A DNA stretch of 64,000 nt from assembly GCA_016208105.1 (NCBI GenBank), contig JACQYS010000029.1:1-64000 (forward strand), written 5' to 3'. Position numbers and translations under genes: made by a program. Every line of letters begins with the position of its first letter. The stretch's first letter is position 1. This stretch comes from Desulfovibrio sp. GTDB lineage: Bacteria > Desulfobacterota > Desulfovibrionia > Desulfovibrionales > Desulfovibrionaceae. Shown here piece after piece: positions 44,501 to 50,437 of this stretch. Below the pieces are notes generated by a model. The model ran no database searches. It was not told the origin of the DNA and was given only the letters and a program-made list of their open reading frames with translations.

Positions 44501-45617
44501 ATGGCACTCCTACAATATCCCGATCTCAAATCCCAGGCCAAGGACATCCAGGATCAATTCGACTCCCTTTGGGGGCGACTTTGACTTGGACGGCAAAAAG
44601 CTCCGTCTGGAAGCCATAGAAGCCGAGCTTTCCAAACCGGATGCCTGGCAGAATCCCGAACTCCTTACTCCTTTTTTGCGTGAAAAAGCCGACCTGACCG
44701 GCAAGGTCGCAAGCTTCGAGGCCCTTCTGAAGTCCCGCGAGGACATGGAAGAGTGGCTGCTCATGGCCCAGGAGGACCCTGGCCAGGAGATGCTGCAGGC
44801 CTTGGCGGATCAGCTCGGACATCTGGGCAAGCTGGTGCAGGATGCGGAACTGGCCACCCTGCTCTCCGGAGCGGAGGACGCCTCGGGCGCCATCCTGGAA
44901 ATCCATCCGGGAGCGGGCGGCACCGAGGCCCAGGATTGGGCCGAGATGCTCCTTCGCCTCTACCGCCGCTGGTGCGAGCGCCACGAGTTCGGCGTGGATG
45001 TTCTGGACTTTCTTCCCGGCGACGAGGCCGGGGTGAAATCCGTGACGCTTCAGGTGAACGGCGCATACGCCTACGGTTTTTTGAAGGCCGAAAAGGGCAT
45101 CCACCGGCTTATACGCATTTCCCCCTTCGACTCCTCGGGCAGGCGGCACACGTCGTTCGCTTCCGTGGACGTCTATCCCGACGCCGGGGCCGACATCCAG
45201 ATCGAGGTCAAGGAAGAGGACATCCGCGTCGACGTCTTCAGGGCCAGCGGCCCGGGCGGCCAGCACGTCAACAAGACCAGCTCCGCCATCCGCATCACCC
45301 ACATGCCCTCGGGCATCGTGGTCCAGTGCCAGAACGAAAAGAGCCAGCACCGCAACCGCGAATCCGCCATGAAGGTGCTCAAGGCCAGGCTCTACGATCT
45401 TGAGATAAAAAAACAGCAGGCCCTGCGCCAGGCCGAGTACGACTCCAAGGAAGCCATCGGCTTTGGCAGCCAGATCCGCACCTACACCATGCAGCCGTAC
45501 CGTCTGGTCAAGGACCACCGTACCGGCAGCGAAGCGGGCAATGTGGAAGCCGTGCTCGACGGCGACATCGACACCTTCATCCGCGACTATCTCCTCCACT
45601 TCCATGCGGGAAAATAG
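44501..45617 (+). CDS. prfB: peptide chain release factor 2 with programmed +1 frameshift
   Basis: Translation from ATG 44501 runs 27 codons to an in-frame TGA at 44582-44584. The site reads TGG GGG CGA CTT TGA C, the classic RF2 autoregulatory shift with an internal Shine-Dalgarno-like GGGGG; slipping at CTT to frame +1 continues GAC TTG GAC to the stop at 45617. The product carries the SPF anticodon-like tripeptide (ISPFDSSGRRHTSF) that reads UGA/UAA and the GGQ loop SGPGGQHVNKTSS. When RF2 is scarce the TGA is not terminated and shift occurs. It is followed by a GGDEF gene overlapping by 14 bases. Confidence 0.97.
44570..44585 (+). promoter_or_regulatory. RF2 programmed frameshift site
   Basis: GGGGG at 44571-44575, a three-base spacer, then CTTTGAC at 44579-44585. 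Its geometry is the same as in E. coli prfB. Confidence 0.95.
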
Positions 45618-47402: not shown

Positions 47403-47678
47403 ATGAACAAGAGCGAACTCATCAACGCCCTGGCCGAAAGCCGCGACATCCACATCGATGAAGCCTCGGCAGTGGTCAACTCGTTCATCGACTCCATTAA
47501 AAGCGCCCTTGTCGACGGGGACCGCGTGGAGATTCGTGGATTCGGCAGCTTCAAGGTCAAGGGATACAAAGGCTACACCGGCCGCAATCCGAAATCCGGC
47601 GAAGTGGTGGATGTGGCTCCCAAACGCCTGCCATTTTTCAGGCCAGGCAAGGAACTCAAGGAATTTCTCAACAAGTAG
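47403..47678 (+). CDS. HU/IHF-family DNA-binding protein
   Basis: The start is ATG 47403 with GGAGG close upstream; 91 residues. The sequence MNKSELINALAESRDIHIDEA, IEIRGFGSFKVK-like core (VEIRGFGSFKVKGYKGYTGR) and NPKSGEVVDVAPKRLPFFRPG are the HU beta-arm and body. The RNPKSGE-type arm with Pro is the DNA-intercalating tip. It organises the nucleoid and is likely a homodimer. It is followed after eight bases by the selenoprotein gene in the same direction, so the two are probably cotranscribed. Confidence 0.95.
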   Translation: MNKSELINALAESRDIHIDEASAVVNSFIDSIKSALVDGDRVEIRGFGSFKVKGYKGYTGRNPKSGEVVDVAPKRLPFFRPGKELKEFLNK

Positions 47679-47686
47679 GACTTTTC

Positions 47687-48589
47687 ATGCGTTTTCTTTC
47701 GGCGCTTCTCGTAGCGTTGTTTGCTTGTATTGGATTTACGGCCTCCGCCCAGGCAGAACCGGTTGTTTCCATAGTATTCTCGGGTAATTCCTGGGGCTAT
47801 CTCAAACCTTGCCCCACCTGAGGTAACCGCACCCTAGGCGGGCTGGCCCGGCGGGCCAGCGCATTCACCAAGTTGCGTTCCCAGGAGAGCGCCAAAGGGC
47901 AGACGCTCTTTATTGCGGGGCCCTACGAGTTTATTTCCGACGACGGCAAGGACCACGCCCTGCCCGATGCTTTCGTGCCCCTGGTCAAGGCGTATGAAAG
48001 CCTCGGATATGACGCCGGCGCGGTCTCCCCGGCCGAGGCCGCGAAACTCGCGAGCCTGAAAACCGCTGCTCCGAAAGGTTGGCAGGTCCTGGACCAGAAG
48101 GAACCCAGGACCGTCATCCTGGACAGCCCCAAGGGAAAGGTCGGCGTCGTGTTTTTCCCTGAGACCAAGAAGGTGGGCGACGACCCGGACCAGCAGGCCA
48201 TCCAGGCCATCGGCCGCGCCATCAAGGAGCTCAGGCCCCAAGTGAAGCTGGTGGTGGGCGTGAGCCCCTGGGGCGTCCAGACGGAATCCGACTTTTTGGA
48301 GAAATCCAAGCCGGATCTCGACATCCTGCTCGGCAGCGGCGGAGGCGTTGGTTTTTCCGGCAAACCGGCTGAAGGCGGCAAGGTCTTATGGGTGCATACC
48401 TACTCGAAGGGCAAGGCCATCTACACCGTTGACGTGCTTGCCTGGCCGGGAGAAAAGGGATTCAAGTGGGAGCCTGGCACGAATTTCACCACCCAGGCTA
48501 TGGTGCTGGACGACACGTACACTCCTGATCCGGGCATTGAGCAACTGCTCCAGAACGTCCCGGACCCTGGCGACAAGCAAGCGAAATAG
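47687..48589 (+). CDS. exported selenoprotein candidate with CxxU motif and metallophosphatase-like GGLARR segment
   Basis: Translation from ATG 47687 (AGGA upstream) meets TGA at codon 45 (47819-47821) and then stays open in the same frame to 48589, for 300 residues if UGA is read as selenocysteine. Residues 1-23 are a signal peptide ending AQA. The UGA lies in KPCPTU (CxxU, Cys42-Sec45), a redox-type motif, followed by GNRTLGGLARRA, a segment typical of 5'-nucleotidase/metallophosphatase-like proteins that normally have Cys near here. A perfect hairpin follows the UGA (see 47842-47860). Downstream sequence (VVGVSPWGVQTESDF, LDILLGSGGGVGF) is fully coding in style. The function is unknown, presumably periplasmic. 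Confidence 0.85.
47842..47860 (+). promoter_or_regulatory. candidate bacterial SECIS hairpin
   Basis: GCTGGCCC (47842-47849) pairs perfectly with GGGCCAGC (47853-47860) around the loop GGC. The loop begins 28 bases after the UGA, inside the range used by SelB, and opens with G as bacterial SECIS elements require. It lies in coding sequence. Confidence 0.75.
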
Positions 48590-48638: not shown

Positions 48639-49520
48639 ATGCAGTTTACCGGAGCTTTCACCGCGCTCGTCACTCCGTTCAAGAACGGGCGGGTGGACGA
48701 AGAAGCCTACCGCGCGCACATAGAGTGGCAGATCGAGCAGGGAATAGACGGCATGGTGCCTTGCGGCACCACCGGGGAGTCCGCCACCCTGTCCCATGCT
48801 GAGCATGCCCAGGTCATCAAGATTTGCGTCGACCAGGTGAAAGGCCGGGTGCCTGTTCTGGCCGGGGCTGGTTCCAACAACACCACCGAGGCCATTGAAC
48901 TCACCAGGGTGGCCAAACAGGCTGGAGCCGACGGCGCCCTGCACATCACCCCCTACTACAACAAGCCCACCCAGGCCGGGCTTATCGCGCACTTCGCGGC
49001 CATCGCCAAGGAAGTGTCCATGCCCTTTATCGTCTACAACGTTCCAGGGCGGACCTCGGTGAACCTGCTTCCCCAGACCCTGGCCGCCATGAAGAAGCAG
49101 ATTCCCGAAGTGGTCGGCGTCAAGGAAGCCACCGGCAACCTGTGCCAGATTTCCGATGTCATCGAGTTCTGCGGCAAGGACTTCATCATTCTTTCGGGAG
49201 ACGACTTCACGGTGCTGCCCACCCTGGCCATCGGCGGGCACGGCGTGATCTCGGTGGTCTCCAACGTGGCCCCGGCTATGATGCGCAAGCTCTGCAAGGC
49301 CTGGCGCAAGGGCGACACCGCCAAGGCGCGCAAGCTTCACTACAAGCTCGCCCCGCTCAACCGGGCCATGTTCATCGAGACCAACCCGGTTCCGGCCAAG
49401 ACCGCCCTTGGGCTCATGGGACGCATGACATCTGAACTGCGTCTTCCCATGGTGAACATGTCCAAGGACTCGGAAGCCAAACTCGTCGAGATTCTCAAGA
49501 GTTCCGGCATCTTGAAATAA
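48639..49520 (+). CDS. dapA: 4-hydroxy-tetrahydrodipicolinate synthase
   Basis: The start is ATG 48639 after AGGGGAG; 293 residues. DapA condenses pyruvate with aspartate semialdehyde, the first committed step to diaminopimelate and lysine. Key residues are visible: VPCGTTGESATL (40-51), YNVPGRTS with Tyr133, and the Schiff-base Lys162 in VVGVKEATG. The family length is normal. The upstream substrate path begins with lysC at 26239. A hairpin terminator follows; the reading frame is preceded by the selenoprotein gene after about 50 bases. Confidence 0.97.
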   Translation: MQFTGAFTALVTPFKNGRVDEEAYRAHIEWQIEQGIDGMVPCGTTGESATLSHAEHAQVIKICVDQVKGRVPVLAGAGSNNTTEAIELTRVAKQAGADGALHITPYYNKPTQAGLIAHFAAIAKEVSMPFIVYNVPGRTSVNLLPQTLAAMKKQIPEVVGVKEATGNLCQISDVIEFCGKDFIILSGDDFTVLPTLAIGGHGVISVVSNVAPAMMRKLCKAWRKGDTAKARKLHYKLAPLNRAMFIETNPVPAKTALGLMGRMTSELRLPMVNMSKDSEAKLVEILKSSGILK

Positions 49521-50043: not shown

Positions 50044-50437
50044 GCGGTTCTCCCTTCGTTACTTGTTGTCTGGCCATGAGCCGATAACGGACTCCATATT
50101 CCACTGACGATGCCTTGCCTGTCTCACTGAACGCACCTCCTGGATAGCCGTTTGGCCTCAAAAGGCATTTATGCGGGTTAATGGGCTGAATTTCCGTCGG
50201 GAAATGCAACTTCAGACATCTTAGGGCATCCTCGTGAAGTGCATTGTTGCCTGTTGCAAGATGCCAATCGGTTTCGTATAGCTACCCCCGGTCGGCAGTT
50301 CACCCAGGCGTCGCCGCCCCTTACGGGGAGCTAAACCTGCCATTTCCTCTTCGATCGACACCTTATCCCGTGCCGAGTCGGAAGACGGCGACCACCGGCA
50401 ATCCATTCCTGGATAGGCGCGCTTGCGAGGATAAGCG
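50044..50437. other. divergent intergenic region, no supported gene
   Basis: About 390 bases separate the cupin gene and the DUF2087 gene. A reverse frame (50221-50568) overlaps the DUF2087 start and lacks a ribosome site. No clear promoter pair or RNA was recognised. Confidence 0.35.

What the first reader, a model, noticed from the sequence alone, without database searches (positions are those of the whole stretch)
47687..48589. Candidate selenoprotein: exported CxxU protein with an in-frame UGA and a perfect SECIS-like hairpin
The only interruption in a 300-codon frame is UGA at codon 45, which is preceded by a signal peptide and lies in a CPTU redox motif followed by GNRTLGGLARRA, a stretch normally seen in Cys-containing metallophosphatase-like proteins. 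A perfect eight-base-pair hairpin with GGC loop starts 21 bases after the UGA (loop at +28). Reading the UGA as stop would give a 44-residue secreted peptide followed by a startless but well-kept frame of more than 250 codons. I do not recognise this as one of the commonly listed bacterial selenoprotein families, so it may be new or little described.
Basis: partly seen in the sequence, partly recalled or inferred. Interest (0 to 1): 0.87.

Follow-up and report, generated by a model that had tools for sequence, protein, structure and literature searches.

The report
Known periplasmic selenoprotein, UshA-like family 2
A stop codon inside this gene is very probably read as the rare amino acid selenocysteine, making an exported protein of a selenoprotein family that is already catalogued but has no assigned function.

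Summary
Frame 47687-48589 (+) has one in-frame TGA, codon 45 (47819-47821), in a CPTU motif after a signal peptide; a perfect 8-bp hairpin with a GGC loop starts 21 bases later. The selenoprotein reading is supported: the genome has selA, selB, selD and tRNA-Sec; of 103 homologues, 88 have TGA and 15 Cys at this column, none anything else; a stem of 5 bp or more at this register occurs in 76 of 88 TGA genes (11.7 expected from synonymous resampling) but 1 of 15 Cys genes (0.86 expected); the stem covaries; the part after the UGA is under purifying selection. It is not new: it scores 312 bits (cut-off 140) against NCBIfam NF049981, 'UshA-like (seleno)protein family 2', which a 2026 review lists as CxxU. 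Likely mechanism (inferred): a periplasmic selenol redox protein on the UshA/SoxB metallophosphatase fold. Of seven UshA metal-ligand columns, 85 of 103 homologues keep none, and a sister selenoprotein family is fused to cytochromes. Substrate and partner are unknown.

The parts
47687..48589 (+). CDS of the selenoprotein, 300 residues with UGA-45 read as Sec, stop TAG
   Evidence: NF049981 312 bits over cut-off 140
47687..47758 (+). putative Sec-type signal peptide, residues 1-24
   Evidence: read by eye from the translation; no predictor run
47810..47821 (+). CPTU motif, residues 42-45
   Evidence: residue 45 is TGA in 88 and Cys in 15 of 103 homologues, C42 kept in 100 of 103
47819..47821 (+). 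in-frame UGA, Sec codon
47842..47860 (+). SECIS-like hairpin: arms 47842-47849 and 47853-47860, loop GGC 47850-47852
47403..47678 (+). upstream HU-like DNA-binding protein gene, 8 bases before the selenoprotein start (context)
   Evidence: HU-like neighbour in 57 of 103 copies, many with only 1.5 kb of flank; name read from sequence
48639..49520 (+). downstream dapA-like gene (context)
   Evidence: dapA-like neighbour in 46 of 103 copies; name read from sequence

Best explanation
The gene encodes an exported selenoprotein of NCBIfam family NF049981. UGA-45 is decoded as selenocysteine, with SelB and Sec-tRNA-Sec acting on the hairpin that begins 21 bases downstream (supported by computation, not by biochemistry). 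The mature protein has the fold of the N-terminal metallophosphatase domain of UshA, CD73 and SoxB (predicted model). The residues aligned with UshA's dinuclear metal ligands are replaced, and a C-P-x-U segment lies in a gap of UshA just after the first ligand motif (alignment). Inferred mechanism: it is not a metal-dependent phosphoesterase but a periplasmic selenol/thiol redox protein. Sec45, usually with Cys42, does the chemistry near the old active site, and electrons are perhaps exchanged with c-type cytochromes, as suggested by the cytochrome-fused sister family NF041198. My odds: selenoprotein 0.98; redox rather than hydrolytic role 0.65; cytochrome as partner 0.3. The confidence below is for selenoprotein plus redox role.
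For: NF049981 312 bits, cut-off 140, positions 1-262 of 262. selA, selB, tRNA-Sec and selD, all over cut-off, in the window's genome. Residue 45 TGA in 88 and Cys in 15 of 103. Five of 8 Cys-only genomes lack both selB and strong tRNA-Sec, against 2 of 86 genomes with a TGA copy (Fisher p 2e-5). SECIS register: 76 of 88 TGA genes v 11.7 expected; 1 of 15 Cys genes v 0.86 expected. Covariation: 4 of 8 pairs change on both sides, score reached by 0 of 500 shuffles. dN well below dS after the UGA. Fold: pLDDT 92.4; Foldseek hits are 5'-nucleotidases, UshA and SoxB. Of 7 UshA ligand columns, 85 of 103 rows keep none, 13 keep one, 5 keep two. CxU-type relatives: 6 of 7 carry CXXCH motifs downstream; 4 of 4 scanned hit Pfam Cytochrome_C554.
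Against: No protein-level evidence of Sec. 12 of 88 TGA genes lack a 5-bp stem at this register, three of them in the same genus with one A.C mismatch in the stem. In one search two measures are reached by 56 and 43 of 500 shuffles, and sliding by -1 gives as many doubly changed cells (24). Against a redox pair: C42 is missing in 3 of 88 TGA genes that keep Sec. Against metal loss: E81 is conserved in 98 of 103, one column from UshA D84, and could be a replacement ligand; the ligand list is recalled and the alignment near D84 and N116 is uncertain. Against a cytochrome partner: 0 of 14 CxxU-type relatives have CXXCH motifs in the frame; co-occurrence with a stand-alone cytochrome fails outside the family (p 1.0). 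Model confidence dips at residues 41-50 (block mean 74), and the model has Cys for Sec.
Confidence: 0.64

Rival explanations
1. Selenoprotein, but Sec45 with Cys42, E81 or others binds a metal or toxic ion: a metal- or selenium-handling or still hydrolytic periplasmic protein rather than a redox carrier.
For: E81 is conserved in 98 of 103; some relatives outside the family keep up to four of seven UshA ligands (L134); Sec is kept in three genes that lost C42.
Against: 85 of 103 family rows keep none of seven UshA ligand columns; the C-terminal 5'-nucleotidase domain is absent (300 residues); sister CxU proteins carry cytochromes.
Confidence: 0.25
2. UGA works as a selenium-dependent switch: a 44-residue secreted peptide when selenium is short, the full protein when it is present, and the short product has a role.
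For: By the standard code the frame stops at codon 45 after a signal peptide.
Against: Nothing tested shows a use for the short product; it would be about 20 residues after signal cleavage (inference). Cys homologues have no such switch (15 of 103).
Confidence: 0.05
3. The UGA is a real stop, a nonsense mutation or a sequencing error.
For: By the standard code the frame stops there, and a TTG-started 238-residue ORF follows.
Against: TGA at the same codon in 88 of 103 homologues, Cys in the rest; purifying selection after it; SECIS kept in TGA genes but not in Cys genes; full Sec machinery.
Confidence: 0.01

Closest known systems
NCBIfam NF049981, UshA-like (seleno)protein family 2 (UshA_like_Sel_2)
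   Same: Score 312 bits against cut-off 140 over the whole profile; CxxU motif as listed in PMC13188914 (passage).
   Different: Nothing found that separates the window protein from the family.
NCBIfam NF041198, UshA-like (seleno)protein, PCGU type (COG0737 UshA-like with CxU; PMC2398784, PMC9312934)
   Same: Related N-terminal domain (46 bits), Sec after a Cys, GGLARR stretch.
   Different: 46 bits against cut-off 275; CxU, not CxxU; C-terminal cytochrome part (profile length 519) absent in the window protein.
UshA / CD73 5'-nucleotidases and SoxB thiosulfohydrolase
   Same: Fold of the N-terminal metallophosphatase domain (Foldseek 3ive E 2.7e-16, 1ush 2.5e-12, SoxB 2wdc 2.7e-11); weak sequence matches (5h7w E 0.0048, 2z1a 0.0053, 2wdc 0.045).
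   Different: UshA metal-ligand columns replaced; no C-terminal substrate domain; CPxU segment in a gap of UshA.

Membership tests
NF049981 UshA-like (seleno)protein family 2 | score over the curated cut-off of 140 bits | tested here: met
   312.4 bits, E 2.3e-93, profile 1-262 of 262
NF049981 UshA-like (seleno)protein family 2 | CxxU (or CxxC) motif | tested here: met
   CPTU, residues 42-45; listed as CxxU in PMC13188914
bacterial selenoprotein | UGA aligned with Cys of homologues | tested here: met
   88 TGA and 15 Cys of 103
bacterial selenoprotein | SECIS hairpin just after the UGA, kept in Sec and not in Cys genes | tested here: met
   76 of 88 v 1 of 15; 12 of 88 exceptions
bacterial selenoprotein | selA, selB, selC, selD in the genome | tested here: met
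bacterial selenoprotein | selenium in the protein | not testable with these tools
   needs proteomics or 75Se labelling
NF041198 UshA-like PCGU type | score over the curated cut-off of 275 bits | tested here: not met
   46.1 bits
NF041198 UshA-like PCGU type | C-terminal cytochrome part | tested here: not met
   no Pfam family at E 10; profile match ends at 266 of 519
UshA-type 5'-nucleotidase | metallophosphatase fold | tested here: met
UshA-type 5'-nucleotidase | dinuclear metal ligands (D41, H43, D84, N116, H217, H252, Q254 in E. coli UshA; list recalled) | tested here: not met
   window protein has N, W, Y, P, P, G, G at these columns; 85 of 103 rows keep none; alignment near D84 and N116 uncertain
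UshA-type 5'-nucleotidase | C-terminal substrate-binding domain | tested here: not met
   protein ends after 300 residues; best PDB hits cover only part of targets of about 500 (TMt 0.41 or less for the 50 listed)

The most novel reading that the evidence does not exclude
A branch of the metallophosphatase superfamily in sulfate reducers and their relatives has exchanged its dinuclear metal centre for a selenocysteine redox centre, turning a hydrolase fold into a periplasmic electron-transfer selenoprotein that works with multihaem cytochromes. Intermediates (partial ligand loss, CxU or CxxU, cytochrome fused or not) are still visible in living genomes.
Probability: 0.3. Interest if true: 0.5.

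Novelty: already known. Interest (0 to 1): 0.24.

Why it matters
As a gene-finding result it is ordinary: one more member of a catalogued selenoprotein family, with textbook SECIS, machinery and Cys homologues. What is worth taking on is that the family has a name but no function, and that 'UshA-like' may mislead: the UshA metal ligands are gone and selenium sits in their neighbourhood. If the redox reading is right, this is a hydrolase fold converted into a selenium redox protein, with intermediates available for experiment.

Tried and rejected
Pfam gave no family for the protein and no consistent one for 43 aligned members: 10 families, each matched by 1 of 43. Folding energy does not separate the hairpin from chance, so I used codon resampling and covariation. 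Gene neighbourhood gives a conserved but apparently housekeeping cluster: lnt-like, prfB-like, GGDEF-like, MinD-like, HU-like, this gene, then dapF-like and/or dapA-like (names read from sequence; 30 loci had only 1.5 kb of flank, so counts are low). It does not reveal a function. A stand-alone tetrahaem cytochrome in the same genome resembles the C-terminal part of NF041198 (102 bits); it co-occurs with the selenoprotein inside the family but not in the rest of the order, so it stays a weak lead. A second TGA with hairpin and open frame (62900 +) was rejected as terminator-like. The covariance model scores the window hairpin 57.8 bits, but the window was in its training set, and Cys genes score up to 39.6 bits in the same search, so I do not lean on it.

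Full report
What was checked. The frame at 47687-48589 (+) reads 300 residues with a single TGA at codon 45 (47819-47821) and ends in TAG. It starts 8 bases after an HU-like gene and is followed by a dapA-like gene (names read from sequence). Of 1911 TGA trinucleotides in the window it is the only one with a stem of 8 or more Watson-Crick pairs and a 3-nt loop at that distance.

Machinery. The window's own genome (99.99% complete by the tool's figure) holds selA (600 bits), selB (366 bits, cut-off 242), tRNA-Sec (79.4 bits, gathering 47) and selD (334 bits). selD has an in-frame TGA at a SAGU motif. The genus appears to be Fundidesulfovibrio: the same-genus genome G001 has its match on a contig of the same length (165514) and place as Fundidesulfovibrio agrisoli SG106.

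Homologues. 96 of 149 genomes, most from the genus and family and the rest from the order, have a match. After leaving out four fragmentary or frame-broken loci (L107-L110), 103 copies from 94 genomes were aligned: residue 45 is TGA in 88, Cys in 15, anything else in 0. Counted by hand: 79 genomes have TGA copies only, 8 Cys only, 7 both. In three of those 7 the Sec and Cys copies stand side by side (L008, L010, L011). Of the 8 Cys-only genomes, five (G014, G054, G060, G081, G142) have neither selB over the cut-off nor a strong tRNA-Sec; of the 86 genomes with a TGA copy, two (G027 and G147, 67% and 77% complete) have neither (Fisher p 2e-5). 'Strong' is my own line, drawn by hand above a group of matches near 47-53 bits that I take for other tRNAs. 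Three Cys-only genomes (G033, G064, G085) do have the machinery. A quick tree needs at least 6 Sec/Cys changes, of which well-supported branches force 3.

SECIS. In 73 of 88 TGA genes the best hairpin has its loop at +28; in Cys genes 1 of 15. With codons resampled synonymously from local usage, 11.7 of 88 TGA genes would be expected to have 5 bp or more there; 76 have it. For Cys genes 0.86 of 15 are expected and 1 is seen. That one, L010's Cys copy, stands next to a Sec copy, as a fairly recent Sec-to-Cys change would look. On 85 distinct rows, 83.5% of cells pair and 4 of 8 pairs change on both sides; 0 of 500 shuffles reach the cells paired, the number of doubly changed cells or the covariation score, but 56 and 43 of 500 reach the other two measures, and a slide of -1 gives equally many doubly changed cells with far fewer paired. 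Also against: 12 of 88 TGA genes lack 5 bp at this register. Three of them are in the same genus, with one A.C mismatch in the stem, and several others fold another hairpin nearby.

Coding constraint. After the UGA, dN is well below dS in the genus: window v L002 0.16 and 0.90; L003 v L004 0.025 and 0.37; L005 v L006 0.029 and 0.26. For the window against the other five, dN is 0.21-0.31 and dS 0.75-1.33, where dS is becoming unreliable.

Family. NCBIfam NF049981 'UshA-like (seleno)protein family 2' scores 312 bits against a cut-off of 140 over positions 1-262 of 262; all 43 members of my protein alignment match it at E 0.001 or better. A full-text search for the accession finds one paper, PMC13188914; its table, seen as a passage, lists the family with CxxU and as 'GenBank annotated'. 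The older UshA-like family with CxU is in PMC2398784 (passages) and PMC9312934 (passages). deep-Sep (PMC12013277) has no 'UshA' in its main text. Haft and Tolstoy 2025 is not held. So the selenoprotein family is known. The listings of six searches show no title on experimental work with it; I did not read those papers beyond the passages named.

Fold and active site. AlphaFold2 on 43 rows (with Cys for Sec) gives mean pLDDT 92.4 and pTM 0.90; the weakest blocks are 291-300 (66), 11-20 (72) and 41-50 (74), the last holding the motif. Foldseek puts a 5'-nucleotidase first (3ive, E 2.7e-16), then snake-venom enzymes, CD73, UshA and SoxB. A profile search of PDB sequences finds the same group weakly (5h7w E 0.0048, 2z1a 0.0053, SoxB 2wdc 0.045). 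On an alignment with E. coli UshA, seven ligand columns (list recalled) are kept in the family as follows: D41 9, H43 5, D84 6, N116 0, H217 3, H252 0, Q254 0 of 103; 85 of 103 rows keep none, 13 keep one, 5 keep two. The window protein keeps none. The CPxU segment lies mostly in a gap of UshA just after the first ligand motif. Nine relatives outside the family keep none to four of the seven; L134 keeps four. Against a clean loss: E81, conserved in 98 of 103, lies one column from D84 and could be a substitute ligand, and the alignment there is uncertain. Other conserved positions include G78, P158, S193, W195, G196, E200, G216, G218, G220 and W235. C42 is lost in 3 of 88 TGA genes that keep Sec.

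Wider superfamily. In a sample of 297 genomes of the phylum, 122 match NF049981 at E 0.001, but only 4 pass its cut-off, all in the window's taxonomic family; many of the weaker matches have a TGA inside. Among the relatives I fetched from that sample (L117-L142), 6 of 7 CxU-type genes have CXXCH motifs in the frame after the motif and 0 of 14 distinct CxxU-type genes do. Of nine proteins scanned, the four CxU-type (L134, L137, L138, L140) and one Cys form (L122) hit Pfam Cytochrome_C554, and the four CxxU-type (L117, L127, L131, L132) do not. This is the main clue to a redox role, but it comes from the sister branch, not from the window's own.

Mechanism, with steps marked. Supported by computation: UGA decoded as Sec; metallophosphatase fold (model); loss of the UshA ligands (alignment). 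By eye: export signal. Inferred: the selenol does redox chemistry in the periplasm; electrons may pass to or from c-type cytochromes. Not known: substrate, partner, physiological role. A stand-alone tetrahaem cytochrome of the same genome resembles the fused domain. Its co-occurrence with the selenoprotein holds inside the family (both 50, selenoprotein only 14, cytochrome only 7, neither 18; p 1.8e-5) but not in the rest of the order (21, 11, 19, 9; p 1.0), and neither test corrects for kinship or genome size.

Verdict. The finding is real, already catalogued and of modest interest. The open matter is function, where the loss of the UshA metal site next to a Sec motif is the most useful observation.

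Noticed in passing
window 44501-45617 (+): prfB-like gene (release factor 2) with a TGA at 44582-44584 in a CTT-TGA-C context, as in the well-known +1 programmed frameshift (recalled): a second UGA recoding site 3.2 kb before the Sec UGA.
   Followed up: partly
window 62900 (+): TGA followed by an 8-bp hairpin and a long open frame; upstream frame looks non-coding and a tadA-like gene follows, so probably a terminator.
   Followed up: yes
window 50289-50342 (+): Rfam COG3860 RNA motif, 76 bits against gathering 42.5.
   Followed up: no
L036:1122-2042 (G000:C3): The genome's selD has its own in-frame TGA at a SAGU motif.
   Followed up: partly
L145:1474-1935 (-): Stand-alone periplasmic-looking cytochrome, 153 residues with four CXXCH motifs, resembling the C-terminal part of NF041198.
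   Followed up: partly
L008, L010, L011: Three genomes of one genus have a Cys copy and a Sec copy of the gene side by side; the Cys copy in L010 keeps a SECIS-like hairpin.
   Followed up: partly
L039, L060, L100: Three homologues keep the Sec codon but have lost the Cys of CxxU.
   Followed up: no
L107, L110: Two homologues are broken across frames in their assemblies; described only.
   Followed up: no
G000:C19:132809-133630 (L146): Another UshA-like frame of the same genome without TGA (75 bits to NF041198, 560-residue open frame), perhaps an ordinary 5'-nucleotidase.
   Followed up: no
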